NCBI GenBank assembly: GCA_017531585.1
Contig: JAFXKT010000001.1
Coordinates: forward strand, 310,001-374,000
Reading direction: 5' to 3'
Length of the DNA: 64,000 nt
From: Candidatus Saccharimonadota bacterium
GTDB lineage: Bacteria; Patescibacteriota; Saccharimonadia; Saccharimonadales; Saccharimonadaceae
The notes under the pieces are model-generated. The model worked only from the letters and a program-made list of their open reading frames with translations. It had not been told where the DNA came from and made no database searches. Of this stretch, positions 1 to 33,943 are shown in pieces (position 1 is the stretch's first letter; the number at the start of each line of letters is the position of its first letter). The position numbers and the translations under genes were made by a program.

Positions 1-1
1 T

Positions 2-18700: not shown

Positions 18701-21700
18701 CAGGACGCAATCGTCAACATAATCGGCGCAGATAACCTGACGGTTGGTGATAACCTAGTCTATATTAAGGTCACAAGTTCAGATCTAACACAGACTCGTA
18801 CATATACAATTACGGTGACAAGAGACGGAAACCCAAGCAACGATCTCGAACAGATTATTGTAAACGGCTCAGTCGTAAACGCCGAAATGGAGCCAAGCTT
18901 CCCACAAGATAACGTAGTGGATTACAAGTACTCGATTAGAAACGATTACACACAGGTCAACCTTGATGCAGTAGCAGAGAGCGAGCGTGCAATCGTAACC
19001 GGTACTGGTGTCATCTCGCTCGATGAGGGCGACAACATTACGCCAATCACGGTAGTAAGCGAAAGCGGCGATGTAAAGATTTACAATATTAATCTTTATC
19101 GCAAGCATAGCAATTACCTCAGAACCATCACGACGAGCGAAGGTGACATAGACGGCTTCATTAAGACGGAAAGCGATTACAGCATTAGTGTTGGCAACTA
19201 TGTGAAATCGATTACGATTCTCGGCATCGCAGAAGACTCGAATGCAACGGTTGGCGGCAACGGCACCTACACGATTCGCCCAGGCGACAACCACATTGTT
19301 GTCTCGGTCGTAAGCGTAGATGGCGAACTTCGTAACTATAACATTACAGTTAACCGCGAAGTTTCAAGCAATAATTACCTCTCGAAGTTGATTGTTGCAG
19401 AAGGCACGATGAGTCCAGCATTCGATCGCGAAACGACAGAATATACGGTCGACGTGATTGATACGGTGAACGTCTTAAGCCTTGATTACGCAACGGAAGA
19501 TCCAGATGCTTCGACAACGGTTCTAGGCAACAACCTAACCTACGGCGATGGTGATGTAACAATCCGCGTAAAGGCAACCGATGGTAGTACACGCGACTAT
19601 GTAATCCATGTTAAGAAACATCCTCGCAGCTACTTCGCAAACTTGCTCCGTGATTTGTCGGTGGATAAGGGTACGCTCAGTCCATCATTCGAACCGTACA
19701 TTAACAACTACACAGTAAATGTTACAAACGACGTAACCGAGATTACGATCTCGGCGGTTCGCGAATCTGAAGATATCCGCATGACTGGTACGGGTACGAA
19801 ACAGCTTGAAATGGGCGAAAACGTATTCCCAATCGTCTTGACGGATAACGAAGGTAACGAAAACATCTACAAGGTTACGGTCTTCAGGGCAGAAGTTCCA
19901 GATCCTCGTCTAGCAAAGATGAGCTTCAATAACGGTACGGTTAGCCCAACCTTTAACAAGAACTACTTCAAGTACAAGGTAACGACTACAACTGATGTTG
20001 ATGCGCTCGAAGTTAACGAGATTAAGACGGTCGAATCGACAGCAAGCTGCGTAATCACCCTTTCGGGCACGGTTAGCTTCTGTTCGGATATGAAGACCAT
20101 CCCAATCACGGATAACACCGAATTTACGATTCGCGTAACGGCAAGTGACGGTCGCAGCACACGTACTTATCGTGTAAATGTGGTTCGCAACAAGTCGAGC
20201 AACAACAAGCTAGCGGTTCTCGAGTCGAATGTTGGTACATTGTTACCAGAGTTTGACCCAGATACAAACAACTACGTTTTGAACATCGATAGAGATGTCC
20301 AGAGCGTCCAGCTAAGCGGTTCGGCACAATCGGCACGCGCAAGCATTTCTGGCATGGGCGTAGTAAGGATTCAGAGCGATGAACAGGTTGCCAACATTAC
20401 GGTAACGGCAGAGAATGGCTCGAAGAATGTTTACTCGGTACTCATCCAGCGTGGCAAGGATAATGATTCGACCTTGAGTGATCTTCGCGTAAAGGGCGAA
20501 ACCTTGAGTCCAAGCTTCAATCCAGCTACAACAGAATATACTGTTGCGGTTCCTTATGAAACCGAACAGGTAGTTGTAGAGGCAGATGCAGCAAAGCCAA
20601 CCTCAATTGTTTCCGGCACTGGCACAAAGAACTTGAACGAGGGTGATAACCTAGTAACCGTAACAGTGACGGCCGAAGATGGCAGCCACACGGATTATGA
20701 GGTAACAATTCATCGTGCTTCGATTGATAGCGCAGAAATCTCTGACCTATGGATTGAAGAAGGTGAGCTTAGCCCAACGTTTGTAGCATTAACAACTAAT
20801 TACAATACGGTAATTCCAAACGAATTCGATCATATTACGATTCATGGCAAACTATCCTCCGGTGGCGCAACATTCGAGGTTGACGAAGATGGCACTTATA
20901 CTGTTGGCGACAACACGGTAATTGTCAGCGGCAATCACGACCTCCATATCGGCACAAATATCGTGACGGTAGAAGTTCGTAGCCCACAGGGCAAGAGTAA
21001 GACTTATAGGATTACAGTTAACAAGAGTAACGAAACCTACAACTTGCTCAAGAGTCTTGAAGTAAAGAACGGCAACACGGTCTTGACCTTGACGCCAAGC
21101 TTTACAGAAGAGGGTATTTACTACGAACTACCAGATGTCGATAACAGTGTAACGAGCTTAACTGTGACGGCTCAGCCGAAGGATGCAACTGCGACAATTG
21201 CAGGCGTAAGCTTCGATATGACCGACATGAGCGGCGGTTCAATTAGCGCAGGCGAGAAGGCAACCGGTACGGCAAGTCTTGAACCAGGCGAGAACTTCAT
21301 CGTTCTAAAGTCTACAAGCTCAATCGACATCGCTCGTACGGTAAGAATCCGCGTCGTTCGCATCGAGAAGACCAACAACAAGTTGGCAAGCTTGACCGTG
21401 AACCCAGGCATCCTTGTTCCAGGCTTTACGGCCGACAGAACAAGCTATGCAGTGTCTTTGAATAATAATCAGACATCAATCACGGTCAATGCGACGGCGG
21501 CGGATAATACCGCTACGGTAAGCGGTACGGGTACGTTCAGTAACTTGCCGGTCGGCAGAACAGATATTCCAATCACGGTCACAAGCCAAAGCGGCGATAC
21601 GAATACTTATACAGTAAGCGTAACGCGCGCGGCCAATGATGACCTAACGATTACGAATATCACGCCAAGCGATGGTGAGATGAATCCAGATGACGTATTT

Positions 21701-22606
21701 ACAGGGAATAGCTACGAGCTAGCAGTTGAACCGGGCGTAAACGTTGTAAGCTTTGATATTACATTCAAGGAGCCAACGACAATCGCAACAGGCAACCGCA
21801 ATGTAGTTCTAACAAGCGACGATCAGACGATTACAGTAACGGCTACGGCTGAAACTGGCCGCACGAGAATCCTAAGCTTCCATGTCACGCGTGGCGTGGA
21901 TGTGACGGGCGTCGAACTTGCAGAACTAAGCGCAAACATCGTAGTGACGGATACTTACCAGATTCAGGCAAGCGTCTTGCCAGCGAAGGCTTCACAGGAG
22001 GTAACTTATACTTCTGCTGATCCAAGCATCGCAACGGTGGACGAAAATGGCCTTGTAACGGGTATGAAAGCTGGCACAACAACGATTCGTGTCGCAAGCG
22101 TAGCAAACCCAGATGTGAACTCGGAGTTTACGATTGGCGTCATTGGAAACCGTATTGAAAGCAATGAGCTAGATGTCTATCATGAGGATACTGATAACGT
22201 AGAGTTTAGTTATGTGATTGGCGCAGAACCGGCAACGGAGCTAAGCGATTTCGTCACGTTATTCTTGAATGAGCCAGAGTATCTTCGTATTTATTCAAGC
22301 GAAGATGATGGCGGCAGCGAGATAACTGATGAGTCTACGATTATTGGTAGCTATATGGAAATCGCATTAGTAATCGAAGGCCATGAGTATGATCGCGTCA
22401 TGATACTTATCCGAGGCGATTTGGATGGTGATGGTTATATCACCAGTGCGGACAATGCTATCCTATCTGAAGCAATCGACAATGCTTCATATACTAACAT
22501 TGAAAACATGATATCGGACGTTGACTTCGATGGCTATCCAACTAGTGCGGATTATGCGAAAATAGCACAATTCATTGACGGTGAAATAACTACCGTCAAT
22601 GAATAG
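2..22606 (+). CDS. Giant secreted glycine-rich/cadherin-like repeat protein with C-terminal dockerin (5' partial)
   Basis: The frame is open from base 2, so the true start, and presumably a signal peptide, lies before the window; the ATG at 152 is internal. At least 7,534 residues are visible, ending in TAG. In order: the end of one glycine-rich domain; eight further glycine-rich domains beginning near bases 968, 2938, 4447, 5995, 7459, 8905, 10474 and 11947, mostly separated by two cadherin-like beta-sandwich domains (Cadherin-like_b-1 type, with YTxxVxR ends); about 30 tandem cadherin-like domains (12.7-21.9 kb); a Big_2-type Ig domain (about 21902-22145); and a dockerin. The glycine-rich units carry the ALK/LTK-type signature (FTAPxxGxYxxxxWGAQGG, then VAGGGGG). 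No C-terminal membrane segment or LPXTG is seen, so attachment may depend on the dockerin. A role in surface adhesion or host contact is inference. The next gene follows after 190 bases containing a terminator and a promoter. Confidence 0.9.
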   Translation, partial: GDATNNATNEATAGWNGGGSGSTDGSGTESNGNDNGGGGGGASDIRYFGSMSITADDLVWNSSLGLASRVMVAGGGAGYGPYNNNTSLANKSLSSYGGYYLNNTGGNAFGVGANGGVIDWGGQPGGGGGYWGGAKNSGVSYGGTNYISGHLGSLAIVSSSSTNWRLDSNGNTCTAATALTDVLCSVHYSDLKFTYTTSSYGYERMPKPTDFYDTVEHGSYTNGYVRIREYYPNDDTTLRSLVVVGEELDQDFDPEEHEYVVDVEADTTYVDVTAVANDSVAFVSGAGRHYIAVGESKDIVISVTAEDGTTNVYTVTVNRPLTDNQLFGCTGYPQIFTAPREGYYYVNLWGAQGGKGTRDTTVGDGAKGGFTRGMIHFDEGDQVYVYVGCKGGDSTNYYKAVGGTGGWNGGANGGKDDSDNNDTDNGGGGGGATDIRLSESLNSRIMVAGGGGGFAYYSYNAMGDRVGGYNKNNTNGYQFGQGQAGYTHSNSTGTGGGAGGYWGGASSDRAGFGGTSFVSGYKESLAIASVDSTAWRTDSEGNACTTASTDITCYTHYSGRKFTNVQVMNGGQTMPDPFDAETDIVGNSGDGAARFTYVVPSSDNDLKSLVLSAGTLTPAFSASETQYTADIPADLNSVQVTAIANSDVAYVAGNGVYDLAAGEKRTVTIVVTAEDGSTKTYSIDVYRRAIASLTVTDAEGTDIPLAFDPTTKIYSATLDEDQTYVTIAATAINPAMVVEGEGTFPVPAEFAEYEVKLKGRNAQGELVTDEYTVELYRPAKQGVQDVDFFVNDVKVTNCNASTFECEANTYTNTTKIYPRTNYPSQYIVDYSTGNQFDEEEPLMLETPVGTTTLEVSVDAEDMSETRIYTLNIHHNLTTKLQALEITNYDTDLLDALDNAGFNPEVTSYHITIPKTYYDVELNAVPSVDGYYVKIEDNHDLTNTYGTITITVCEASDKCVTSEDDDIIDPTVYTISYTKVDNSNSYDMMGSYQVFTAPVNDRYYMQVWGAQGGSMSCDNWTGKGGKGGYAAGFLDMQAGEKVYVYVGQAGEGYNCRQSNYYGGWNGGGTTNGGASGGGGGSDIRYFGNHEPSSAELAWNSELGLRSRIMVAGGGGGSNDHTSGGYGGGLTGGTGEYAGGACNGGDAIGYGGTQLNAGSGWPSGAFGVGGGLPNTQPDGGSGGGGYWGGGKAGGCNRAGGGGSGYVSGYKGAIAVESAGTNSPRSDSNGNICTAETAATDEKCSYHYSGKVFEESVLKGGNEEMPTHDNKSTMTGNSGSGYAWIRTLSKNDYLYNLTATLGDGQKAFSPVFDPTTLTYTLTLSPYDYYVDFEAVAQDVDAKIELANDQTDSVDDKNRPVASTRVNVETGSQIQNIKVTSPDGKNQTYTINIVRPEGDNNTTLLKSLSVNAGTIQDTFTPTHKAYTVDIPGRFFDLDVTAVPFANDATVTITGDKFLDHTTGTITITVSKAGLEDSVYTIVYTKVDNNAADFPYNSSCQPFTAELTGMYHVQLWGAQGGYPVNNTYTGGKGAYTEGDLALNAGDTIYVCTGQFTNGNGATVGGGGAGNSNSGYAGGGATDVRWFGDGITPTSAELAWNNINGLSSRIMVAAGGSGAVTYTTSRYYNSGSAGGVFKGFDGKNNYEPYFGQPNDVSTGGTQIAGGNAADNTNSEYRNGKSAGANGQFGIGGNSGGWGSGAGGGYFGGGGGASSDWSVTTGAGGSSYISGHTGFIAIGAKGSIGARFDSNGEICQEGTTDNLCSVHYSGKVFVESKAIDGESEMPTQDNTGTQIGNAGNGHALITKASNDAYLRSIKLSRNGAELLASEMAWDQDFDALKYNYTVELDSTIEYVDVEGIAHNETAVVTGNQRVTLDYGETRVVTLGVTSGLNTSKTYTVTLTRKQAEGSTLLKSLSIADAKFNPDFDKNTKTYDVVLKKGAIDTKVLYEKFDNDATVTITDENGEAFDANDSKKLFGDEGTITVTVSKTGLVSAVYTLNWTKDEGKTEFEYDDKPQQFIAPISGYYKVELWGAEGNSPIGSKLGGNGAYTSGNIWLNKDEVLWIYIGEHREGNQSQSAATYSDNSSAGFAAPSFNAGSIGGPSESSGYGGGGATDVRLVNGKWHDAASLASRIMVAAGGGGAVSYAGGAYGGNGGALVGEQGARAISGSSAIVSSLPQGATQTTGGASGVITEGYGGNMGPAGQFGVGGNAGGSGVDLQYGGGGGGGYWGGAGGGHTGGVVISGAGGSSYISGYKGSVAIYSATDTSPRKDSNGNLCTDGTQDVVCSYHYSGKVFYNGVMRAGVNEGYGKAVITAPSVDNYLKSLTADKGSFDKAFAPETDEYTLTLSATDTRVELFATPNDSTSVVAGAGEYIINGNRDITITVTGADGTSRNYLVHIVRPAIEGHSTLLSSLTIADYPIEFYPNTFEYDIDITAITTSLNLNYTTFDNTATVAVAGNDHFYDDEGTVTLTVSATGETDSVYKINYHRDNGVENTYGSTGSYQTFTAPKDGYYTIELWGAAGGMGMRDIVRMAGAAGGYTRGKVFLHAGDTLYIYVGGKGGMAEFGYSKQYGLGGWNGGANGSSDPDSLSEGDSDNGAGGGGATDVRWFGSGVTPSEADLEWDSELGLASRVMVAGGGGGFGYRSGYNVYFHTGGYYYSNENGYQFGKGQPGISYYYTGSGGGGGGYWGGKAINNGSDNGAGYGGTSYVSGHLGGSIAIESASSTSWRKDSTGETTCTTALAATDITCTLHYSGLVFTDTAMISGNGIMPSPSGETMRGNNGDGAVRITYDNLDDDNFLKSLTVDPGTLTPSFDKETTSYTVNLPSNQAMTTIDAKASSKDAIISGLGEYRVNAGESATANIIITAENGITRTYTVTINRAAVTGHSTKLESLAIAEYPNFIRNFDSDTLNYSLVVSAKTYDLNITAVPFDDEATATIEGDHNLGVDGGTITITVTHTGQSPTTYTITYTREKSNKTSGYGCTGNVQTYTAPYSGKFKIEAWGAQGGQGANKSTAYAGGYGAYTAGEIELVAGDVLYLYVGCQAPAHNWASTDLSAGGWNGGGAGGFYSNGNSSYAAGGGGGASDVALVQSAVTTDSQGRTVRTLESYASRIMVAAGGGGGGPNRHNDGQAGGGLSVIGRKVYYSDTAFTVNGGNQTSGYAFGYGLSSVSTSSSTRIGGGGAGYWSGYNDLNPPAATGPIEGVGGTSYISGHAGSVAVAGAGTSNPRTVNGLACVTGITTVDCSKHYSGKYFTNTVMIDGAGYSWTNVRGSYVKQPTADSQVQTGQSGDGYIKITPLVASENWYLDDITHKADGQTIGTLTQKNDPNAGFDPLATEYNLVINAYENYVDVQGVTDDITAVVTGGGEVALDEGESKDVILVVTDAAGDTKTYTVHVSRETYNGEHTTKLKTLTVALFDTNLTPHFSPEIMGYTIDIPENETDLNFSYTTFDNEAIVTVAGNQHLTAATGNITINVAHPDVSGTAVASSTYTIAYRKVKYVNKGYDYTGNYQVFTAPYDGDYLFEAWGAATGYGSGKGAYTKGTLSMLEGDTVYIYVGAAGASSTNSKRFNAGTGSSGGYNGGGSTDFRWFGRGVTPTDANLVWDSAVGRASRVMVAGGAGSGNSGTATGSGGKLVGLTGRAQNTPGGTQFAPGANEIPGTYTDSVFGIANGGCTGGNGYYPGGASSCANGAGGGSSFISGYLGAVAVSSVDDWTPRKDSLNATCTEESAKIDNTCSKHYSGLIFKNPEMYSGVEVIPTKDGTSTQTGNSGNGYARVQLIGDYTPAEYQNSKSRDNYLNDLQSDVGTLTQASNPSAGFDPLVLAYDLAIDKYDIDYKLTGTLSDDKATVTGLDVVRTIDDGEAQDITITVTSEYGDVRNYTVHVHRDAIEESDRTTLLEKLVVKNESADLTPRFRPITNYDPNNKTYEVEVLSGQVNMELDYKAFDSEKGATVAVAGDKYLSDSGYVTLTVSEAGLEDTVYRIHYTKVAADVNFSADCTKSVKKIEVLANGFYELQVWGAQGGTNMQDGRHTTAGGRGGYTKGVAELKKGEDLYVAVGCKGQDAVRGGAAAGGWNGGGNGWWDHSDDEAQGAGGGATSIQKSLIGDGQLRNYSNNRDDVLVVAGGGGGSQANSGGHGGGLTAYPPAGNGHGWYWGYEATQTYGYAFGYGENGYSRGSCGGYEAGGGGGGWYGGFTISHIDNNCGSGGGGSGYFKSGLLEAKSINGASTMPNTAGTGTMTGKTGNGYAKVVMRDYSRNNYLDVLNISSFKKVNGVEVEEDENPQLNPQFVAPVNGSAHATEYWLELNSEEDAVNIEARPADDKSTVVGTGRRNIPAEGYDWALTVTAESGEQRNYVIHITRPKSATNKLLSIQHSGLMPSICERDTTKFCNLSPETFSPNVNNYTMTVPAGQREISFTVNMGHYYEKIYFSQDTGQELEDLTPGEEDERTESYVFNYDKLRLKAGYNQFKFRIVSETGEENTYIYNIYRDTTDDNYLDNLEVVYPTGVDLGFDYLVTEYAFRVENNVTGVSLKITPDSELATYEISMSNEEGEIGCEDHDGDDTADSDCGGLIVGENYINVTVTAPGDPNDPSVPKEKRTYTLTVYRVASGDTLLKTLTVKNGSTNYQLSPEFNPIKTAYTLTVDNEISSVAVAATPNSSTTTIFGAKTYSQTHALNTGDNQINLVTTAQNGATETYTIMITRRKNSNTNLSSLSVDGFNLTPSFNKNVVEYTLNVGAQTKELDITAIPEVNTSTYKITGNSNFKNGENNVEITVTAEDGSEKTYTITVNRQGYTDNHLSSLTVSDDNTTYELSPAFDPDYDSEDGVYTVSIPNDVNRVTVAGELAGLGSTVTGLGEYALPTGTTTARIKVTSETGDVREYDIEITRAKSSDSTLKSLVLTDTSGNILTYEPAFDPATTAYTITVPNEIREGIVSATPTNCGATVTGPDTYEFNVELGTHVDIVVTAEDESSSTTYTLDIARQKSGNTNLANLYMEEAIISPRFNKENKSYTATVPYEVDSATVIAIPEDTTSRATISGNDNLVVGQNLITVTVTSQSNKQDTYTITVTRNPEPVFNLKLEDLKVKNGETELTLDPTFNKNDGRQLFYTVEVEYEVDSLDIFARAQEDTAGVGINGGSAVFDTFSGDAASAHVTFDVGTNLIPIRVTRTDTVGGTPITEERDYQVAIVRKPSDDPRLSNLIIKNGTISPAFQPSQDPEDLMADDYYEVRTEASNLKFSTVKMFPEQKVKYVITDEQGNVLTKNYKLTDGESVTITFTVTSALGTRTKVYVLHVTKATATSARLADLWVEGFQISPSFNPDTKHYTLTVQDNTKSVLVYATPESEFATVTGTGGYQLPLGTTTATINVTSEDGQSTDQYTIDITRIGSHDATLAGLGVVGHEIDPDFHSNVYEYSVQVAYNVEDVTIVAVANNEESIITGDGLHTVRRGTNRFPVRVTSGAGDTLTYYVNVIRDNPVTALLDNLAVRNYNLDTAFNSNIFRYSVTVDNEVSQLIKDTDLIISPIDAKATYEVYDANGNRVTSEMPLEVGLNTYRIVVTSSDGEETATYTLVINRQSYSNTFLSSLQVVANGEAQEMTPSFVKTQLSYTVVVDNDVTEIDINAVAENSSTRISGTGHKTNLAVGDNNYVITATSSAGISRKYLINVIRAGSSNALIKTLEKITEPHGTITKTGTYTYDLVVPRTVTGLTYDDFRVVPQDPGATVTLQPSLDLTTGKNDYLITVTSQDGKATLDYTVYVRYDSDDETRIRGLTTTVMPEGGSEIAGELVPDFDRNTYRYNVQIRDDMDIAKLVPIPINTKQTIVNLQHLTDGYELTEVDSSNEASYHTTVPINVLAENGDTATYYVTYDKNIAVGRTLKDIYVTYDKDACAPAIEADGVTCDDSPTYDRETYSYHMDVADEVKEITLHFTEDNKNQITKIYKVVNGEDVVIYGGDTTALYQGQGTGSLENSLETGDNVFKVVMTNSLNQSTTYTYTITREMSQNKDLRSLRVTNPSGASYTPSFDKDRLEYTVIVPYDNDEIELEAIPVRPDAPTTVEIRGLKNLMVGSNDSTITVTAHNGDKKRYIVHVIRAPQVNNFLKQLTVSTGEIQILTPVFNPATQSYSLVIPSSNDMVTVQGIASDEEANVTVIGLDGASSTAEGEAQLEFGVKLGQNLAYVNVEKDGSVRTYTLNITRTPLKNTLLKSLTLNNAQIYEDFYGTRQDYTAQINYEYTSLDLTAIPEDQDAIVNIIGADNLTVGDNLVYIKVTSSDLTQTRTYTITVTRDGNPSNDLEQIIVNGSVVNAEMEPSFPQDNVVDYKYSIRNDYTQVNLDAVAESERAIVTGTGVISLDEGDNITPITVVSESGDVKIYNINLYRKHSNYLRTITTSEGDIDGFIKTESDYSISVGNYVKSITILGIAEDSNATVGGNGTYTIRPGDNHIVVSVVSVDGELRNYNITVNREVSSNNYLSKLIVAEGTMSPAFDRETTEYTVDVIDTVNVLSLDYATEDPDASTTVLGNNLTYGDGDVTIRVKATDGSTRDYVIHVKKHPRSYFANLLRDLSVDKGTLSPSFEPYINNYTVNVTNDVTEITISAVRESEDIRMTGTGTKQLEMGENVFPIVLTDNEGNENIYKVTVFRAEVPDPRLAKMSFNNGTVSPTFNKNYFKYKVTTTTDVDALEVNEIKTVESTASCVITLSGTVSFCSDMKTIPITDNTEFTIRVTASDGRSTRTYRVNVVRNKSSNNKLAVLESNVGTLLPEFDPDTNNYVLNIDRDVQSVQLSGSAQSARASISGMGVVRIQSDEQVANITVTAENGSKNVYSVLIQRGKDNDSTLSDLRVKGETLSPSFNPATTEYTVAVPYETEQVVVEADAAKPTSIVSGTGTKNLNEGDNLVTVTVTAEDGSHTDYEVTIHRASIDSAEISDLWIEEGELSPTFVALTTNYNTVIPNEFDHITIHGKLSSGGATFEVDEDGTYTVGDNTVIVSGNHDLHIGTNIVTVEVRSPQGKSKTYRITVNKSNETYNLLKSLEVKNGNTVLTLTPSFTEEGIYYELPDVDNSVTSLTVTAQPKDATATIAGVSFDMTDMSGGSISAGEKATGTASLEPGENFIVLKSTSSIDIARTVRIRVVRIEKTNNKLASLTVNPGILVPGFTADRTSYAVSLNNNQTSITVNATAADNTATVSGTGTFSNLPVGRTDIPITVTSQSGDTNTYTVSVTRAANDDLTITNITPSDGEMNPDDVFTGNSYELAVEPGVNVVSFDITFKEPTTIATGNRNVVLTSDDQTITVTATAETGRTRILSFHVTRGVDVTGVELAELSANIVVTDTYQIQASVLPAKASQEVTYTSADPSIATVDENGLVTGMKAGTTTIRVASVANPDVNSEFTIGVIGNRIESNELDVYHEDTDNVEFSYVIGAEPATELSDFVTLFLNEPEYLRIYSSEDDGGSEITDESTIIGSYMEIALVIEGHEYDRVMILIRGDLDGDGYITSADNAILSEAIDNASYTNIENMISDVDFDGYPTSADYAKIAQFIDGEITTVNE
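12739..21901 (+). repeat. Tandem array of about 30 cadherin-like beta-sandwich domains
   Basis: Each unit is about 85-95 residues. It opens with a motif like (N/D)xxLxxLxVxxGxLxPxFxxxxxxY and closes with VTxExGxxxxYxIxVxR. The units match the bacterial Cadherin-like_b-1 family (PF12733) by eye. They are divergent at the DNA level, unlike the glycine-rich modules upstream, so this looks like an old array. It probably forms a long stalk; that role is inferred from repeat architecture. Confidence 0.8.
22415..22603 (+). other. Dockerin type I-like domain at the C-terminus of the giant protein
   Basis: Two calcium-loop motifs are visible, GDLDGDGYITSAD and SDVDFDGYPTSAD, each followed by a helix-like stretch. 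This is the duplicated F-hand layout of type I dockerins. It is the last folded element of the protein. Dockerins bind cohesin domains, so this end probably docks the protein to a partner. Confidence 0.8.
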
Positions 22607-22639
22607 GGGGGCTTGCTCTAAGTTGAGAATCGGTTCATT

Positions 22640-22683
22640 AGTGGCGGCTATTGTCTCTATAGGCAGTAGGTAGCCACTTTTTT
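22640..22683 (+). terminator. Rho-independent terminator of the giant gene
   Basis: AGTGGC (22640-22645) pairs with GCCACT (22673-22678), followed by a run of T. The loop is long and partly structured, so the hairpin is moderate in strength. Confidence 0.6.
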
Positions 22684-22734
22684 GTTGGTTGGGTTTTGAT
22701 TGGAGGATGTTATCAAAAATATTGTATTTTAGTC

Positions 22735-22790
22735 TTTACAAACTATTCTTCTTATGATTAAATGGACTTAAACAAGGTCAAAATAAAAAC
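22735..22790 (+). promoter_or_regulatory. Promoter with AAGGTCA initial-region element, upstream of the 2,602-aa surface protein
   Basis: The -35 TTTACA (22735-22740) is separated by 17 nt from the -10 TTAAAT (22758-22763), which is preceded by an extended-10 TGA. Exactly 10 nt later stands AAGGTCAAAATAAAAA (22774-22789). The same 16-mer occurs at 45515-45530, and AAGGTCA at 30736, in both cases 10 nt after the -10. The ATG follows at 22797 with no clear Shine-Dalgarno sequence. Confidence 0.6.
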
Positions 22791-22796
22791 ATTAAA

Positions 22797-25700
22797 ATGA
22801 AAACACAAGAGAGAAAAAAGAGTGTTTTTAATACTCTGTTGAGGGTTTTTGCTATCGCTATGGCGATTAGCTCTTGTGTATTTTTGTCGCCTTCTAAAAC
22901 TTATGCAGAAGATCATACTTGCTCCGATCCGAATAACTGCTCGGCTTTTACTATAGAAGTTTATAGGTGTGAAGGGACTTGTGTCGCCAATAACCTTGGT
23001 CAGTTTGCTTCGAAAATTGCAAACGGCACGGCTAGTAGTTATTTAGTTGGTGATAGTGATAAAATTGCTGCTGGCGATAATCTTGTTATTGCTATTAAGT
23101 TTGTTCCTGCTAAGTATCAAAACACTTATCCAAAGACGTTTACTGATACGGTGACGTATAATACCGATTATTTCACTACGGTTAAGAAAGCTAATGGCAC
23201 GTTCTATTCTTATACAATCGCCAAACAGTTGCCATATACTACAGAAGAGCAGTGGGATGATGAGGCTGAAGATTATAAGACCGTAACGATTGCGCAGTAT
23301 ACTAATACACTAACAAATGTAAACGCTGGCGCTGTAGTTCAGCAGGTTCAGCCAAAGTCTGTTAGTGGTTCTCCAGCGATTGATAAAACAGCATATACAG
23401 GTTTCTTCTCTTTGTCAGTGAATGAAAATATTCCTGCAGGTGCACAGGCGACCATTGGTTTTAATGATTCGACTCCTACAAACATGGTTTTGTCTGGTCC
23501 AATTAATGGTACTGTTACTAAATTCCCATACAAGAAAACGGATTATGTTCTGAACTTTGCAGGCGATTCCGCTTCTACTGATGCAACCCTCAGCGCGCTT
23601 GCTGTAAAAAATAGTACCAATACGGTTACCTATCCACTAACTCCAACTTTTGATTCTACTTCGGCCGCAACTCCACGCAATACTTTCTCGACAAAGGTTC
23701 CTAGTTCAGTTTCTAGCATTAACATTCATGCGACTGCTAATGATAATAATGCTCAGGATATCCGTTTATTTGATGGCGAAAAGACTGACCAAGAAGTAGA
23801 GAACGATACTGATCCTACAAAGTCTATTGTCTCTGGTAGTTCGGTTCCGATTGTTGGTATTGGTAACAAGACGGTTGTAACTGGTGAGAATAAGTTTACT
23901 ATTGCAGTTACATCTCAGTCTGGAAATGTCCAAAATGAGATTATCTCGGTATATAAACTATCTAATGATGCAAATCTTTCGGATTTGGTTGTAGCAGGGG
24001 AAACTCTATCTCCAAGCTTCGTGCCATCTACTACGGGTTATACAATCGATAACGTTCCTTATTCGACAAAGAAGCTAAATATTAATGCTGCGGTCAGCGC
24101 AACGGGCAAAGCGACTTTGACTGGCACCGGAACCTGGAATTTTTCTTCGGATCCTACAGCGGCTACGACATTCACGCGCGATATCGTGGTTAGTCCAGAG
24201 GAATGTCAGTATGTTAATGGCGCAAATCAGGTTCAGGGCGCAAGCTGTGTAACGAAGACTTATACCATCACGGTAAACCGAGAAGCAGCGAGCACTGATG
24301 CGAATTTAAAATCACTTTCGGCGACCTACGTGCATACTACTGGCTCGTCGGCTACTACAGATTCATTAATTCAGAGCTCTCAAGCGGGTCAGACATTTGA
24401 TCTTGGCAGTATCGGTTACGGCGCGGAATCTATCAGCTTTGATGTTACGGCTAACCAAGAAAAAGCCAAGAAGATGACCATCTCGGTCAATGGCGGAGCA
24501 GAGACGACTATTGCGACAAGCGGTTCACCAATTTCTGGCACCGCAACTTGTAGTCTAAACGTTGGCGATAATACTTGCGTTATCAGGGTTACAGCAGAAG
24601 ACAACAGTACAACTCAAACCTATACGATTAAAGCTCATCGTCGTAGCAACGATGCAAGTTTGAAAACTTTGACTGTTTCGGCTATTCCAGCTTCGAGCAC
24701 GCCAGATTTAAGTCCAACTTTCCCAAACTCGAGTACTGATACTTATAACTATGTTTATAGCGAGAAGGCTACAAGTTATGCTGTTTCTGCCACTGTAAAC
24801 GATACAGATAAGACTGAGTCTATCGTAATGGCTGGTAACCATACGCCAAAGACTGAGACCGGAAATAGTATTACTGATAGCTTTACGCCAAGCGGCAATG
24901 TTTCTCCGGCTGATAGTGTAACTGTTACGGTTACTGCAGAGGATGGAAATACGCGCATCTATACGGTCAACCTCACGCGCGAGCGCTCGACCGATGCATC
25001 TCTAAGCGAAATCGTAATCACGACGAGCAACGGCACGACAACCGAAGATCATACGATTACGCCAACGGCAAACAACTACAGCTATTCGCTAGAAGTTGAG
25101 CCAGATGTAAGCACGATTGCGAACGTAACAGCAACACCAACCAGTTCACACGCAAATGTCGCTTCTGGAGATATTACTTACGATCAAGATTTGAAATTTG
25201 GTAGCGGTAACCCAGTAACAATCAAAGCAACTCCAGAGCAGGGTAACAAATCGCAATACAACATTACGATTACGCGCAAGGAATATAATATTGCGGGCGC
25301 AAGCAAGATTGAAGTTCGTTACGGCTCAGAATCGACCTGGACGGAAGTAAGCGGCGTAAGCGCAAATGAAGATGGTACTTTCAATCTTCGAGTCAAAGAT
25401 GTAAATCCAGTTCCATTTGGCACAGGCACGATGGAATTCATGGTAACCAAAGCCGAAGAACATGCACACGTTGAAGGTGATGGTTCGAAAACACTTGAAT
25501 CGAAGAAAGATAACGTATTTGCAATTACGGTTCAGTCTCAGGATAAATCCGTAACTCGTACCTATACATTCCATGTTTATCGTGAAGGCGACCCAGATAC
25601 CGGGCTAACGAGTTTGACGGTTGCAGGCATAACTCCTACGACGGTCGATACAACACACTTTGCGGTTACGATTCCATACTCAAAGGTAGAGGTTACCGAA

Positions 25701-28700
25701 AGCGATGTAAATGTGGTAACGCGAAGCGGTTTTGCGACTGTTGCGAAGAGTGGTACCTTACCAATTAACGCAGGTGAAACTAAAGATTATGTATTCACGG
25801 TAACAGCCCAAAATGATACAGTGGAGACTTATCACATTGCGATAACTCGTAAACAAAACGATCAGGCTGGCGCAAGCCAAATCACGCTTCGCCTATCTGA
25901 TGAATCGACGGGTACGCGTAACTGGGTACCATCAGGAAACCAGACGACATATACCTTCGAAATTCCATACAACAAGAGTCAGTATTACCTTGAGGCGGTA
26001 ATTCCGGATGGAGCAATCAGAGTATCGGAAGATCCATATGTGGATAGTGATGATCTCTTAACAATCGGCAGTAATGGCACTTCGGAACATAAGATAAAGA
26101 TTAAGTCGCAAGATGGAACCAAAGAAGTAGAATATACGATTACGGTCAATCGAGCGAAATCAGCAGATAAGAGCCTAACGGATTTGAATCTTACCTATAC
26201 CGAAGGCGACGGAACACAGCACATTAAACAAACGGTTACAAACTTCTCGCCAACGAATCCTTCTTACAATGTTTCGGTTGGAGGCGATGTAACAAATATT
26301 ACGATTGGTGCTTCGCTGGCCGACAGCAGGGCAAAGTTCGTTGAAACCGATAGTAACGCTGATTTAAGCAAATATGTCGATCTTGCTTATGACTTAAATC
26401 CTCCGATAACCTTTGAAGTTCAGGCTGAGGATGGATCGAAGCTAACTTATACAGTGAACGTCACGCGTCAACGCAAGACAAATCCGTACATTCAAAGTAT
26501 TACAATCAATGGCCAGCCACTAAATAATTACCTCGCAAGCGGAACTTATGACGGCGACCATGCAAATGGTACTTACGAATACACCTTAACAAAGTTTGAT
26601 AATAGCACGAGCCAAATCACAATTGATGCAGTGATGGTAGACGCAGATGATGCTCATGCAGAAATAAGCGCAAGTAAGGTATTTCCACAGAATGTCGCGC
26701 TCAATACGATTCACTATGGTGGTGCTCAAAACGCAGAGAACCAGATTGAATTCTATGGCGTAGCGCATAACGGCAGCAAGTGGAAATATACCTTGCATGT
26801 TTATCGTGACGCCAGCAGTGATGCAAGCGCTTCGGTAGAAGCTGATGCGGTTCAGGTCTACTGGAATGGTACTTGGCATAATGCAACGTGGACACCAAAC
26901 GAAAATGCCTACGTAATAACAGTTCCAAACTCGGTAACAACTGCAAGTAGTGCAAACGTCCAGGCGAAACCAAAGACTCCATGTACTGGCTGTAATGCAG
27001 CAACGGTTACGATGGACGAGCAAAAGACGCTCGTAACGGACGATGAAACGTATGATAACGTTAATAGATATGGCTTTACGGTAACGGCTGAAGATGGCAT
27101 AACGAATAAACATTACAATATTGAGATTACTCGTGAGAAATCTGACGACGCAACACTAAGTTCTTTGACAGTAGATAACGCCCAGGATGTAAGCATTGGT
27201 AGCTTTAATCCAAGCTTCTCGCCAAGCAATGGAGGTCCATATACCGTTACGGTTGGCAAAGATGTAAGTGATATTTATATCAACTACATACCGACCGAAG
27301 GACATGCGAATGTTACGGGCTATGGTCATAAAGAAATTGACGGCGTAGACGATGTCTTTACGATTGAAGTAATCCCAGAAAACGGCGATACGACCAAGAA
27401 GAAAACTTACACCTTGAATATCGTTCGTGAAAAATCTGACGATGCAACGCTAAGTGAGTTTAAGGTTACAAACCTAAACGGCGAAGCGTACACGATAACG
27501 CCAACCTTTAATCCAAGCGATTCGACGACGGTTTATCAAGTCTCAATTCCTGGTGACGAAGATCGTGTCTTGCTAGAATATGTCGGTTCGCAGAATCTAG
27601 CAGAAGGTGTAACACAGACGATTGCTTACACGGTAACGCCAGACAACGCTCCAAACGAATATAATATTCCGACTGGTGGCGAACGTACGCTTGGCGTAAA
27701 GGTAACAGCAGAGAACGGCACGACAGAGAAGACCTATAGTGTAAAGGTTACCCGCACGAAACGCAACAACGCATTACTCGATACCTTAACATATACCTTC
27801 AATGGCGGAACGACACAAAGCGTCAATCTTGAGAATTGCACTCTAGATGATGGCGAATATACCTGTGACCTAGGTCAGCTTGCAAGCAGCGGCGCTTCAG
27901 GAATGACTCTTGGCGCAACCGCAAAAGATGATCAGGCAACCATCACAGGTGACGTTTCGACTCCATTGACGATTTCGACAGGTAGAAACAGCTATCAGAT
28001 TACGGTGAAAGCCGAAGATGGTACGACTGAGCAAGTCTACAATATTACGCTCCTTAAGAAACCATCCGAAGAGGGTTCGCTCTCGAACATGTATGTAAAG
28101 GATGCCTCAAACCTTGATCCTGCTTTCAGTGCTGGAACATACAGCTACACGGTTACGATGAATGATGAGGATAAAGATAAACTTTATGCATCTGATATCG
28201 TAGCAACAAGAGCAAGCAATAAGGCGACAGCAGAGATGTCTGAGCCTATCGACTTGATTGTTAACCAGGATAACTGGTACACGATTACTATCAAGCCTGA
28301 AGCTTGTGATGATAAGTACGCAGACTTGGTGGCGGCGGGAGTTGTTAACTGTAATGACAATATTAAGACCTATTACATTAACGCTCAGCGCAAGCCTTCA
28401 TCAAATAGCTTCCTTTACAATGCAGAAGTAGATAGCGGTACGCGCATGTCGCCAACCTTCTCGAAGACTGGCTTTAACTACAACATTACGATTCCTTACG
28501 GTGGTAATTCGTTCGAAATAACGGCAGAGCCAGAACGCACGACATCAATCGTAACGGATAATGCCGGACATACCTTTACAAGCGCAAATAACTATAAGCA
28601 AAGAGTTTACTATAACGATTTGACGAATGGCGCCTACAGAATAACGGTAACGCCGCAATCTGGCGAAAATCCACGCTATTACAACTTTACAGTCTCGATA

Positions 28701-30605
28701 GCGCAATCCAGTGATAGTACCTTGGCAAGTTTGCAAGTTTGGAAAGATGGAAATCTAGTTGAATTAACTCCAGCGTTTGATGCGGGCCAGTTAGCCTACT
28801 CAATTCCAGATATCACGAATGATGTGACGGAATTAACCGTAATGGCAACAGAGAATAACCCAGACGCAACTTACCGTTACATCTATCAGAACAATGAAGT
28901 CTGCGGCGAAACGGGAAGTTGTAAGATTACTATTGATCCAAGCAAGACAATGCAGACGATCAAGGTGGAGGTAACGCCGGCCGATCAGAGCGGGCCAAGC
29001 GTTTACCGAATCGACTTTAACATCAAGAAAGACAATAACGCGAACCTTGCTACCTTATCAGTTGGAACTCCGGGCACACTAAACAGAAGCTTCGATCCAG
29101 GTACTACCGATTATTCAGTCAATGGCCTAACTTACGAAAACGTATCGGCGCCAGTAGTATTGAAGTATACGGTTAGTGACCCAGATGCAAGAGTTAGCAT
29201 AAATGGCGGCGCAGAGAAGACAGGCGGTACAGTGGAGTGGACCGAAAACCTGAACTTTGATACGACCGACAAGAAGCAGCAAACTATTGTCACGACGATT
29301 AAAGTTATCGCAGAAGATAATAGTTCGAAGACCTACACGGTTACGGCGATTAGGGCGGCTGCTATAGCAAGTAGCGATCCGACTCTAGCAGCCTTGAGTG
29401 TAACGGGTGAAACCCTAAGCCCAAGCTTTGCGGTAGACCACGAACCTTACGACATTGGCGAAATTGCATATTCGAAAGAGAGCATTGAAGTAAATGTTCA
29501 GCCAAACAACGAAGAAGCACGCGTCTTTATCAATGGCGATGAGGTAGCAATTAGTGGTGGTGTTGGCTCAGCAACAGTTGCGGCTCCTCAAACAAATGAT
29601 GAGCAAACGGTAACGATTCGCGTACTAGCAGGCAACAATGTAGACGAAAAGACCTACACGATTAAGTTCCATAAGAACGGTAGCTCAGATACAACGCTAT
29701 CTCAGATGGAATTTACAAATGGCACATTAAACGAAGACTATTCACCAGGGATAAAGAATTATACTTTGACTCTAGGGGAAGACCAGACGACAGGCATCAT
29801 CGTGACGCCAAATGATCCGAATGCGACAGTAAGCTTCGGTACAACTGACAACATGAAGATCTTGGACCCAGGTATAGAAATGGGTGTAACTGGTCTAACC
29901 GAAACGGTAAACACTCGTAAGCTCCTAATCATGGCACAGGACGGCACGATTGAGGATATTACAATCACAATCGTAAGAACTACTGGCGAAGATAGAATTA
30001 CTTCGTTAGCCTATGGCCACGAGATTACAGCGAGAAACGTTACGGTGGATGGTGAAGTTGCGAAGTATGGCTACATCATGAGCGTAGCGGATCGCAATAT
30101 TGGTGAGAGAGCAGCAGACGGAACATATCCAGATTATGATAATTCACCATCTGGAACGATGACAGTCGAATTGCTCGCAAACCAGCTGGATAACCAGCGT
30201 GTCAACTTGCACTTTTACAGACCAAACCTCGATGAAAACGGAATTTTCATCGGCAAGGGCGATGAGATTACAAGCGACGAAGTAATTGGTACCGGTACAG
30301 TTGTAACTCTTGAAGTAGATAACGTCTTGAAAGATCAGGTAATCGTTATTATCAAGGGCGAAGTAAACGGTGACGGTGTAATCAACTACAAGGACCGCGG
30401 TAAAATTATTAACCATAATGCTGCCGATGGAACAAAGTTTGCAGAAGGATCTCTTGGAATTATTGCAGCCGATATCGATAGTGACGGCATAATTAATTAC
30501 AAGGATCGTGGTAAAGTGATTAATCACACAGCCGCAGATGGAACCAGGATAAATTACGGTGCGATGCTAAACCCAGCGGGGGGAGGCGCGCCGCCTGGCT
30601 CCTGA
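22797..30605 (+). CDS. Secreted cadherin-like repeat protein with C-terminal dockerin (2,602 aa)
   Basis: The N-terminus is a typical signal peptide: basic MKTQERKK, a hydrophobic stretch to about residue 30, and a likely cut after TYA or YAE near residue 38. Residues about 45-255 form a non-repeat beta-rich domain with Cys residues. Its AAGDNLVIAIKF and TVTYNTDYF stretches recall the aGdxVxVxV and lxYDp parts of cohesins, a weak resemblance. From about residue 260 there are roughly 20 cadherin-like beta-sandwich repeats, each opening with DAxLxxLxV-type motifs. The last 80 residues hold a dockerin. There is no transmembrane anchor or LPXTG. The gene ends in TGA and is followed by a strong terminator. 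With the preceding giant gene and the next gene it forms a cluster sharing domain families; it is probably an exported surface or matrix protein, exact role unknown. Confidence 0.88.
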   Translation: MKTQERKKSVFNTLLRVFAIAMAISSCVFLSPSKTYAEDHTCSDPNNCSAFTIEVYRCEGTCVANNLGQFASKIANGTASSYLVGDSDKIAAGDNLVIAIKFVPAKYQNTYPKTFTDTVTYNTDYFTTVKKANGTFYSYTIAKQLPYTTEEQWDDEAEDYKTVTIAQYTNTLTNVNAGAVVQQVQPKSVSGSPAIDKTAYTGFFSLSVNENIPAGAQATIGFNDSTPTNMVLSGPINGTVTKFPYKKTDYVLNFAGDSASTDATLSALAVKNSTNTVTYPLTPTFDSTSAATPRNTFSTKVPSSVSSINIHATANDNNAQDIRLFDGEKTDQEVENDTDPTKSIVSGSSVPIVGIGNKTVVTGENKFTIAVTSQSGNVQNEIISVYKLSNDANLSDLVVAGETLSPSFVPSTTGYTIDNVPYSTKKLNINAAVSATGKATLTGTGTWNFSSDPTAATTFTRDIVVSPEECQYVNGANQVQGASCVTKTYTITVNREAASTDANLKSLSATYVHTTGSSATTDSLIQSSQAGQTFDLGSIGYGAESISFDVTANQEKAKKMTISVNGGAETTIATSGSPISGTATCSLNVGDNTCVIRVTAEDNSTTQTYTIKAHRRSNDASLKTLTVSAIPASSTPDLSPTFPNSSTDTYNYVYSEKATSYAVSATVNDTDKTESIVMAGNHTPKTETGNSITDSFTPSGNVSPADSVTVTVTAEDGNTRIYTVNLTRERSTDASLSEIVITTSNGTTTEDHTITPTANNYSYSLEVEPDVSTIANVTATPTSSHANVASGDITYDQDLKFGSGNPVTIKATPEQGNKSQYNITITRKEYNIAGASKIEVRYGSESTWTEVSGVSANEDGTFNLRVKDVNPVPFGTGTMEFMVTKAEEHAHVEGDGSKTLESKKDNVFAITVQSQDKSVTRTYTFHVYREGDPDTGLTSLTVAGITPTTVDTTHFAVTIPYSKVEVTESDVNVVTRSGFATVAKSGTLPINAGETKDYVFTVTAQNDTVETYHIAITRKQNDQAGASQITLRLSDESTGTRNWVPSGNQTTYTFEIPYNKSQYYLEAVIPDGAIRVSEDPYVDSDDLLTIGSNGTSEHKIKIKSQDGTKEVEYTITVNRAKSADKSLTDLNLTYTEGDGTQHIKQTVTNFSPTNPSYNVSVGGDVTNITIGASLADSRAKFVETDSNADLSKYVDLAYDLNPPITFEVQAEDGSKLTYTVNVTRQRKTNPYIQSITINGQPLNNYLASGTYDGDHANGTYEYTLTKFDNSTSQITIDAVMVDADDAHAEISASKVFPQNVALNTIHYGGAQNAENQIEFYGVAHNGSKWKYTLHVYRDASSDASASVEADAVQVYWNGTWHNATWTPNENAYVITVPNSVTTASSANVQAKPKTPCTGCNAATVTMDEQKTLVTDDETYDNVNRYGFTVTAEDGITNKHYNIEITREKSDDATLSSLTVDNAQDVSIGSFNPSFSPSNGGPYTVTVGKDVSDIYINYIPTEGHANVTGYGHKEIDGVDDVFTIEVIPENGDTTKKKTYTLNIVREKSDDATLSEFKVTNLNGEAYTITPTFNPSDSTTVYQVSIPGDEDRVLLEYVGSQNLAEGVTQTIAYTVTPDNAPNEYNIPTGGERTLGVKVTAENGTTEKTYSVKVTRTKRNNALLDTLTYTFNGGTTQSVNLENCTLDDGEYTCDLGQLASSGASGMTLGATAKDDQATITGDVSTPLTISTGRNSYQITVKAEDGTTEQVYNITLLKKPSEEGSLSNMYVKDASNLDPAFSAGTYSYTVTMNDEDKDKLYASDIVATRASNKATAEMSEPIDLIVNQDNWYTITIKPEACDDKYADLVAAGVVNCNDNIKTYYINAQRKPSSNSFLYNAEVDSGTRMSPTFSKTGFNYNITIPYGGNSFEITAEPERTTSIVTDNAGHTFTSANNYKQRVYYNDLTNGAYRITVTPQSGENPRYYNFTVSIAQSSDSTLASLQVWKDGNLVELTPAFDAGQLAYSIPDITNDVTELTVMATENNPDATYRYIYQNNEVCGETGSCKITIDPSKTMQTIKVEVTPADQSGPSVYRIDFNIKKDNNANLATLSVGTPGTLNRSFDPGTTDYSVNGLTYENVSAPVVLKYTVSDPDARVSINGGAEKTGGTVEWTENLNFDTTDKKQQTIVTTIKVIAEDNSSKTYTVTAIRAAAIASSDPTLAALSVTGETLSPSFAVDHEPYDIGEIAYSKESIEVNVQPNNEEARVFINGDEVAISGGVGSATVAAPQTNDEQTVTIRVLAGNNVDEKTYTIKFHKNGSSDTTLSQMEFTNGTLNEDYSPGIKNYTLTLGEDQTTGIIVTPNDPNATVSFGTTDNMKILDPGIEMGVTGLTETVNTRKLLIMAQDGTIEDITITIVRTTGEDRITSLAYGHEITARNVTVDGEVAKYGYIMSVADRNIGERAADGTYPDYDNSPSGTMTVELLANQLDNQRVNLHFYRPNLDENGIFIGKGDEITSDEVIGTGTVVTLEVDNVLKDQVIVIIKGEVNGDGVINYKDRGKIINHNAADGTKFAEGSLGIIAADIDSDGIINYKDRGKVINHTAADGTRINYGAMLNPAGGGAPPGS
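23571..29990 (+). repeat. About 20 tandem cadherin-like domains in the second surface protein
   Basis: The repeat starts are recognisable by DATLSALAV, DANLSDLVV, DASLKTLTV, DATLSSLTV, DSTLASLQV, DPTLAALSV and DTTLSQMEF. Each repeat ends in a YTxxVxR-like strand. The repeats differ from each other in length by up to about 25 residues. They are the same family as the array in the preceding giant gene and the four domains in the next gene. Confidence 0.75.
30357..30560 (+). other. Dockerin type I-like domain with two near-identical loops
   Basis: The two calcium-loop repeats, NGDGVINYKDRGKIINH and DSDGIINYKDRGKVINH, are nearly identical to each other, suggesting recent internal duplication or conversion. 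Both are followed by AADGT. This is the duplicated F-hand architecture of a dockerin. It is followed only by a Gly/Pro-rich tail. Confidence 0.8.
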
Positions 30606-30632
30606 TCGGGGAGGTGTGTAAAAGAAGTCTTG

Positions 30633-30662
30633 AAATGACCGGCAGGGGTGCCGGTCATTTTT
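30633..30662 (+). terminator. Strong Rho-independent terminator
   Basis: AAATGACCGGCA (30633-30644) pairs perfectly with TGCCGGTCATTT (30649-30660) across a GGGG loop, followed by further T. Confidence 0.92.
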
Positions 30663-33194: not shown

Positions 33195-33219
33195 AAAACT
33201 AGCCGAAAGGCTAGTTTTT
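33195..33219 (+). terminator. Rho-independent terminator
   Basis: AAACTAGCC (33196-33204), a GAAA tetraloop, GGCTAGTTT (33209-33217), then T. A compact, convincing hairpin. Confidence 0.9.
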
Positions 33220-33257: not shown

Positions 33258-33283
33258 TGGTATAATTGTCTCAATCAGGAGGT
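33258..33283 (+). promoter_or_regulatory. Extended -10 promoter and strong ribosome site deciding the start of the next gene
   Basis: TGG plus TATAAT (33261-33266), then AGGAGGT (33277-33283) four nt before the ATG at 33287. An upstream in-frame TTG at 33266 overlaps the -10 and cannot be the start. Confidence 0.75.
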
Positions 33284-33286
33284 AAA

Positions 33287-33904: not shown

Positions 33905-33907
33905 AAC

Positions 33908-33941
33908 ATCAAAAAGACCCTCGTGCGAGGGTCTTTTTGAT
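33908..33941. terminator. Bidirectional terminator between convergent genes
   Basis: ATCAAAAAGACCCTCG (33908-33923) pairs perfectly with its complement (33926-33941). A-tracts and T-tracts on both sides let it serve the + strand membrane-protein gene and the - strand LOG gene. Confidence 0.92.
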
Positions 33942-33943
33942 GA

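What the first reader, a model, noticed from the sequence alone, without database searches (positions are those of the whole stretch)
22415..30560. Candidate cohesin-dockerin surface assembly built from two adjacent giant proteins
Both giants end in dockerin-type duplicated calcium loops and neither has its own membrane or sortase anchor. The N-terminal domain of the second protein (about residues 45-255) has cohesin-like stretches (AAGDNLVIAIKF, TVTYNTDYF). If it is a cohesin, the first giant could dock onto the second, and copies of the second could chain head to tail. This would be a non-cellulosomal assembly used for surface architecture.
Basis: inference. Interest (0 to 1): 0.7.

Follow-up and report, generated by a model that had tools for sequence, protein, structure and literature searches.

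The report
Dockerin-tethered giant surface proteins in Saccharibacteria
In a tiny parasitic-type bacterium, two giant surface proteins end in a calcium-dependent 'plug' (dockerin), and the next gene encodes a membrane-anchored protein that very probably carries the matching 'socket', which looks like an immunoglobulin-type domain rather than the textbook cohesin.

Summary
The dockerins are real: the only two PF00404 matches in this 1.01-Mb Saccharibacteria genome are the C-termini of the two giants (7671 and 2602 aa). Neither giant has a membrane or LPXTG anchor. The proposed cohesin (giant 2 N-domain) is not supported: no Pfam or profile match, and the AlphaFold model is unusable (pLDDT 39). 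It is not excluded either. The missing partner is most likely the third gene, 30816-33182: signal peptide, N-terminal beta domain, cadherin-like repeats, one TM helix, 220-aa cytoplasmic tail. Across the family, dockerin genes are followed directly by such an anchor in 20 of 27 cases. A relative (G030) has the orthologous operon, with a Pfam cohesin at the N-terminus of its anchor. A profile of this anchor's N-domain family found 31 genes, all 31 directly behind a dockerin gene. At one conserved site the dockerin type and the anchor N-domain type differ together between relatives. Six genomes have a three-gene chain: cargo-Doc, receptor+Doc adaptor, receptor+TM. Giant 2 occupies the adaptor position. 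In this lineage the receptor domain resembles Big_2/Ig-like domains, not cohesin, which may explain dockerins in genomes without cohesins. Binding is inferred, not shown.

The parts
1..22606 (+). Giant 1 (7671 aa; true start 410 nt upstream of the window at contig C4:309591): signal peptide, about ten ALK/LTK-type glycine-rich domains (PF12810) alternating with cadherin-like domains, then a long run of cadherin-like domains (PF12733), one Big_2, X-like module, C-terminal dockerin
   Evidence: sequence
22193..22414 (+). X-like module before dockerin 1; the C-terminal 190 aa with it are conserved in the orthologous giant 1 of relative G030 (33% identity, E 3.5e-17)
22415..22576 (+). Dockerin type I domain of giant 1 (two calcium loops)
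   Evidence: (E 7.2e-7)
22797..30605 (+). Giant 2 (2602 aa): signal peptide, unassigned N-domain, a long run of cadherin-like repeats, X-like module, dockerin
22908..23582 (+).
   Evidence: position by analogy
30357..30527 (+). Dockerin of giant 2 (two nearly identical loops, NYKDRGK-INH); recognition positions differ from dockerin 1
   Evidence: E 2.8e-4; independent HMM E 3.6e-10
30632..30661 (+). 13-bp hairpin with T-rich tail between giant 2 and the anchor gene (attenuator- or terminator-like)
   Evidence: consensus scan only; number of sites not above shuffles
30816..33182 (+). Membrane anchor protein (788 aa), proposed surface tether; ortholog in G030 carries a Pfam cohesin at its N-terminus
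30897..31283 (+). N-domain of the anchor: proposed dockerin receptor (type C family, Ig-like/Big_2-like in other members)
   Evidence: (the only match in this genome, but this sequence is a row of the query)
31581..32435 (+). Three cadherin-like domains of the anchor (PF12733)
32463..32522 (+). Single transmembrane helix of the anchor
32523..33179 (+). About 220-residue acidic/coiled cytoplasmic tail; its last ~40 aa resemble the tail of the G030 anchor
   Evidence: (E 0.004)
33266..33904 (+). Small single-TM protein (up to 212 aa), fourth gene of the conserved cluster (33% identical in G030, E 1e-22)
33907..33942 (.). 16-bp stem terminator-like hairpin directly after the small gene, probable end of the cluster
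   Evidence: consensus scan only

Best explanation
The cluster encodes a non-covalent, probably calcium-dependent surface tether. Giant 1 and giant 2 are secreted, rod-like adhesin or coat proteins with no anchor of their own; each carries a C-terminal dockerin. The next gene (30816-33182) makes a single-pass membrane protein whose N-terminal domain is the socket for the dockerin of giant 2 and so holds it at the cell surface (inferred from gene order and covariation across relatives). Giant 1 is attached either through the N-domain of giant 2, which would make giant 2 an adaptor (inferred from three-gene chains in relatives), or to the same anchor. Shown here: the dockerins, the absence of other anchors, the anchor's architecture, the conserved dockerin-then-anchor gene order, and an orthologous operon whose anchor has a Pfam cohesin. 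Inferred: the physical binding, the partner of dockerin 1, and the role in surface architecture or adhesion.
For: (1) In 198 family genomes PF00404 occurs in 34. For 27 dockerin genes with a readable downstream neighbour, 20 are followed directly (usually -13 to +58 nt; one at 209 nt) by a gene for a single C-terminal-TM protein, against 20/137 other genes (Fisher p 1.8e-9). (2) Several of these anchors carry Pfam cohesins next to the dockerin: G030, G097, G008; in G049 and G151 the cohesin is on the upstream side. Their profile matches solved cohesins. (3) G030 has the orthologous cluster: giant 1 C-term 33% (E 3.5e-17), giant 2 C-term 35% (E 1.6e-8), anchor 42% (E 1e-88), small gene 33% (E 1e-22); its anchor N-domain is a PF00963 cohesin (E 2.8e-10). 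(4) The window anchor N-domain matches other anchors' N-domains (E 1.7e-6 to 7e-5, pairwise). A profile of that family finds 31 genes with the domain, all 31 directly downstream of a dockerin gene (20 of them in genomes not used to build it). (5) Covariation at one locus (pth-topA): G193 vs G216 cargo 61% identical but dockerins 24%, anchor N-domains 39% against 51% for the rest of the anchor; G216 vs G221 unlike cargo but dockerins 64%, N-domains 68% against 48%. (6) Three-gene chains with a receptor+dockerin adaptor in six genomes.
Against: No binding was tested. Both AlphaFold models were too poor to use. The window anchor's N-domain has no Pfam match and no profile match to cohesins. The doc/receptor similarity correlation (Mantel r 0.74, Spearman 0.29, p 0.006) is partly shared ancestry. 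7 of 27 dockerin genes lack a downstream anchor. The giant 2-anchor gap (210 nt, with a hairpin) is longer than the usual overlap. Most of the 31 receptor genes come from two genera, and six are the second receptor of a chain system, so they are not independent events. Dockerin similarity of giant 2 to type C partners is not uniformly higher than to others.
Confidence: 0.74

Rival explanations
1. One reading: the N-domain of giant 2 is a cohesin, giant 1 docks onto it, and giant 2 polymerises head to tail through its own dockerin.
For: Relatives encode real receptor+dockerin adaptors in the same gene position. In those, doc1 resembles doc2 (45-58% identity) and N-adaptor resembles N-anchor (39-46%); in the window and in G030 doc1 and doc2 differ (27% and 35%) and the two N-domains are unrelated, as expected if each N-domain matches its own dockerin.
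Against: The N-domain has no Pfam, PF00963 or profile match, no relatives in 45 genus genomes apart from a chance-level hit, and an unusable fold model. Self-chaining is disfavoured because dockerin 2 has its own adjacent candidate receptor.
Confidence: 0.35
2. Dockerins 1 and 2 both bind the anchor N-domain; giant 2's N-domain is a ligand-binding or adhesive tip unrelated to docking.
For: Only one anchor of the receptor family is found in this genome. Giant 2's N-domain has the tip position and the domain in the same place is triplicated in G030, as adhesive or sugar-binding modules often are.
Against: The two dockerins share only 27% identity and differ at the loop positions that usually set specificity. 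In G030 there are two dockerin giants and two anchors.
Confidence: 0.3
3. The C-terminal calcium loops are only folding or stability caps (orphan dockerins with no partner), as could be supposed for dockerins in genomes without cohesins.
For: No PF00963 cohesin in the genome; dockerin-like modules are widespread outside cellulosomes (Peer et al. 2009, cited in PMC8542988 and PMC10066038; not read here).
Against: The tight, repeated coupling to a membrane anchor gene (20/27; 31/31 in the reverse direction) and co-change of dockerin and anchor N-domain at one locus are not expected for a cap.
Confidence: 0.12
4. A true but fast-diverging cohesin fold lies behind both receptor types; the Ig-like resemblance is superficial.
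For: The orthologous G030 anchor has a Pfam cohesin in this position; weak profile links type C - type D (85% probability) - cohesin (67%, 25 columns only).
Against: Type C members match Big_2 (7 of 11, best E 2e-5) and the Ig-like domains of an IgA Fc receptor and S-layer proteins in the PDB (E 2e-4 to 5e-3), never a cohesin.
Confidence: 0.4

Closest known systems
Clostridial cellulosome anchoring and adaptor scaffoldins (for example Acetivibrio and Ruminococcus systems, PMC4217186; adaptor scaffoldins, PMC4959524)
   Same: Dockerin at the C-terminus of a secreted protein, receptor on a surface-anchored protein, and Coh-Doc adaptors building chains.
   Different: No catalytic or cellulose-binding modules in the giants; the anchor is a single-pass TM protein directly downstream of its dockerin partner; the receptor here is not recognisable as a cohesin; one dockerin gene to one anchor gene rather than many enzymes on a scaffold.
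Non-cellulosomal cohesin (NagJ, PDB 2ozn and related entries; matched by relatives' anchors)
   Same: A cohesin outside any cellulosome; relatives' anchor cohesins match it in sequence.
   Different: Soluble enzymes rather than a membrane anchor and giant repeat proteins.
Candidatus Stygibacter (Cloacimonadota) cohesin-dockerin complex (PMC8542988)
   Same: Uncultured bacterium with dockerin proteins including a glycine-rich surface protein with a dockerin.
   Different: Has a canonical scaffoldin with tandem cohesins and hydrolytic cargo.
Giant ORF with nine dockerins in Omnitrophota (PMC10066038) and essential dockerin protein SEML1_0315 of Southlakia epibionticum (PMC10633639)
   Same: Dockerins on large or essential envelope proteins of host-dependent ultrasmall bacteria; SEML1_0315 is a saccharibacterial dockerin protein required for growth.
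   Different: No receptor was proposed in the passages read; both papers suggested adhesion or sugar binding by the dockerin protein.

Membership tests
Dockerin type I (PF00404) | Two calcium-binding F-hand loops at the C-terminus | tested here: met
   Both giants
Dockerin type I (PF00404) | Score over the curated cut-off | tested here: inconclusive
   Giant 1 over (29.8 bits); giant 2 below (21.5 against 22.9), but E 3.6e-10 with an independent dockerin HMM
Dockerin type I (PF00404) | Calcium-dependent binding to a partner module | not testable with these tools
   Only gene order and covariation available
Cohesin (PF00963), N-domain of giant 2 | Sequence match to the cohesin profile | tested here: not met
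   No match in the genome, none at E 10, profile-profile none
Cohesin (PF00963), N-domain of giant 2 | Nine-strand jelly-roll fold | tested here: inconclusive
   AlphaFold mean pLDDT 38.8
Cohesin (PF00963), N-domain of the anchor (30897-31283) | Sequence match to the cohesin profile | tested here: not met
Cohesin (PF00963), N-domain of the anchor (30897-31283) | Jelly-roll fold | tested here: inconclusive
   AlphaFold mean pLDDT 33.5
Dockerin-receptor anchor of Saccharibacteria (defined here by relatives) | Signal peptide, N-terminal beta domain, C-terminal TM, encoded directly 3' of a dockerin gene | tested here: met
Big_2 / Ig-like domain (receptor type C) | Profile match | tested here: inconclusive
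   7 of 11 members match Big_2 (best E 2e-5) and the type C profile matches Ig-like domains in the PDB (E 2.2e-4), but the window's own copy has no match
Cellulosome | Cohesin scaffoldin plus dockerin-bearing CAZymes | tested here: not met
   Giants have only cadherin-like, glycine-rich and Big_2 domains; no cohesin in the genome

The most novel reading that the evidence does not exclude
Saccharibacteria use a dockerin receptor that is not a cohesin: an Ig-like (Big_2-type) domain on a one-pass membrane anchor, encoded immediately after its dockerin partner, with adaptor proteins that let giant surface fibres be chained onto the membrane. If so, genomes with dockerins but no cohesins are not orphans; they have a second class of receptor that annotation misses.
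Probability: 0.45. Interest if true: 0.75.

Novelty: new variant of a known kind. Interest (0 to 1): 0.62.

Why it matters
Host-dependent Patescibacteria must hold on to other cells, yet how their giant surface proteins are attached is largely unknown. A plug-and-socket tether encoded by neighbouring genes would give a general rule for finding the attachment machinery of these bacteria. It would predict the partner of the essential dockerin protein SEML1_0315 in a genetically tractable species (PMC10633639). It would also give dockerins a new class of partner, offering a testable answer to why many genomes have dockerins but no cohesin.

Tried and rejected
AlphaFold of giant 2's N-domain (single sequence; pLDDT 38.8) and of the anchor N-domain (two sequences; pLDDT 33.5): unusable, so no fold search was run. 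The weak hit of giant 2's N-domain in G224 (E 0.0045) is a pilin-cluster protein without dockerin context: rejected. The G030 giant 2 N-domain (three copies) looks similar by eye, but shuffles (Z up to 2) and hhalign do not support homology; its profile finds nothing convincing elsewhere. Viral contigs: nothing. The genome-contig scan found only G183 (JAUMYE010000043, Candidatus Saccharibacteria S16M_St_8) and a distant cadherin-like protein in a Bacilli MAG. A direct link of the anchor N-domain to cohesin was not significant.

Full report
SETTING. The window is contig C4:310001-374000 of a 1.01-Mb, 6-contig genome estimated 99.6% complete. Its close relative G183 is JAUMYE010000043, 'Candidatus Saccharibacteria bacterium S16M_St_8'. 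Four genes on the + strand form the cluster: giant 1 (starts 410 nt upstream of the window, 7671 aa), giant 2 (22797-30605, 2602 aa), a 788-aa protein (30816-33182) and a small single-TM protein (33266-33904). A strong terminator-like hairpin follows (the hairpin is a consensus match only).

OBSERVATION. Both giants have a signal peptide, long runs of cadherin-like domains (PF12733) and a C-terminal dockerin. Giant 1 also has about ten ALK/LTK glycine-rich domains and a Big_2 domain. The genome has exactly two PF00404 matches, these two, and no PF00963 cohesin. The giants have no TM segment beyond the signal peptide and no LPxTG motif, although the genome carries six sortase matches. The cohesin assignment for giant 2's N-domain does not: no Pfam match at E 10, no convincing relatives in the genus, no profile match, fold model unusable.

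THE MISSING PARTNER. The gene directly after giant 2 encodes a signal peptide, an N-terminal beta-type domain of about 130 aa, three cadherin-like domains, one TM helix and a 220-aa cytoplasmic tail. Comparative evidence says this is the tether. In 198 genomes of the same family dockerins occur in 34 and cohesins in 10. Of 27 dockerin genes with a readable downstream neighbour, 20 (in about ten genera) are followed immediately, often with an ATGA-type overlap, by a gene for a protein with a single C-terminal TM helix, against 20 of 137 other genes (Fisher p 1.8e-9). Several of these anchors have PF00963 cohesins at their N-terminus, and their profile finds solved cohesins, including NagJ.

ORTHOLOGOUS OPERON. 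Relative G030 (another genus) has the same four-part cluster plus a second anchor: a glycine-rich/cadherin-like giant with X-like module and dockerin, a 2649-aa giant 2 with dockerin, a 741-aa anchor, a 512-aa anchor and the small TM protein. Identities: giant 1 C-terminus 33% (E 3.5e-17), giant 2 C-terminus 35% (E 1.6e-8), anchor 42% over residues 87-543 (E 1e-88), small protein 33% (E 1e-22). The G030 anchor's N-domain is a Pfam cohesin (E 2.8e-10). This places a cohesin in the orthologous position of the window's anchor N-domain.

THE RECEPTOR DOMAIN HERE IS NOT A RECOGNISABLE COHESIN. The window's anchor N-domain aligns with the N-domains of other anchors (type C; pairwise E 1.7e-6, 4e-5, 7e-5) but not significantly with cohesins. 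A profile of types C/D (A5, which includes the window copy) searched over 394 family genomes found 36 genomes with a match. Among the fetched loci, 31 genes carry the domain strongly, and all 31 lie directly behind a gene whose C-terminus matches a dockerin HMM built only from other (cohesin-type and type B) systems; 20 of the 31 are in genomes not used to build the profile. Type C members match Big_2 (7 of 11, best E 2e-5), and their profile matches Ig-like domains of an IgA Fc receptor and S-layer proteins in the PDB (E 2e-4 to 5e-3). Type C links to D (85%) and D weakly to cohesin (67% over 25 columns), so a diverged cohesin is not excluded.

COVARIATION. At one conserved chromosomal site (between pth and topA) three species of the genus carry dockerin-anchor pairs. 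G193 and G216 have orthologous cargo (61% identical before the dockerin), but their dockerins are only 24% identical; their anchors are 51% identical outside the N-domain and 39% within it. G216 and G221 have different cargo, yet their dockerins are 64% and anchor N-domains 68% identical, against 48% for the rest of the anchor. Thus dockerin similarity follows the anchor N-domain and not the cargo. Over 16 pairs the similarity matrices correlate (Mantel r 0.74; Spearman 0.29, p 0.006), with shared ancestry as a confounder.

CHAINS. In six genomes of another genus (G239, G254, G631, G642, G617, G633) a middle gene encodes a 274-276-aa adaptor: type C receptor domain at the N-terminus and dockerin at the C-terminus. 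It stands between a large dockerin protein and a receptor+TM anchor. Giant 2 (N-domain ... dockerin) has the same place and polarity. In four adaptor genomes measured the two dockerins are alike (45-58%) and the two receptor domains are alike (39-46%). In the window and G030 both the dockerins (27%, 35%) and the N-domains differ. This pattern fits giant 2 as an adaptor with a receptor of its own type, but it is indirect.

WIDER. Across 286 genomes of the phylum, dockerins (E<=1e-6) occur in 51 and cohesins (E<=1e-4) in 70; both in 21 (12.5 expected; Fisher p 0.004). In eight of the 21 a cohesin lies within about 1.2 kb downstream of a dockerin or in the same short cluster (adjacency read by hand from the coordinate tables). 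I found no paper in the held library that describes a cohesin-dockerin or dockerin-anchor system in Patescibacteria. An essential saccharibacterial dockerin protein, SEML1_0315, is known without a partner (PMC10633639). Most subscription journals and preprints are not held, so prior description cannot be ruled out.

VERDICT. The tether model is well supported by gene order, orthology and covariation, but binding is unproven. Which receptor holds giant 1 is open.

Noticed in passing
1-13000: Giant 1 carries about ten repeats of the ALK/LTK glycine-rich domain (PF12810), best known from metazoan receptor kinases, alternating with cadherin-like domains.
   Followed up: no
30632-30661 and 33195-33218: Hairpins in the gaps before and after the anchor gene, possibly setting the ratio of giants to anchor.
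   Followed up: no
Relatives G362:C27 and G389:C33/C36 (other Patescibacteria families; coordinates): Runs of dockerin genes of about 620-715 aa; in G362 five of them are followed by a 945-aa protein with two cohesins and a dockerin: a candidate cellulosome-like cluster in an ultrasmall bacterium.
   Followed up: no
L054 (G169:C19): A dockerin gene followed by two anchors in tandem with similar N-domains; the first also has a long DPT repeat spacer.
   Followed up: partly
L175 (G622:C8): Two complete dockerin-anchor pairs facing each other (convergent), both of type C.
   Followed up: partly
L001:18865-19194 (just upstream of giant 1): Short gene (109 aa) with a helix-turn-helix-like start, possibly a truncated RhuM-type protein (impression from sequence only).
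   Followed up: no
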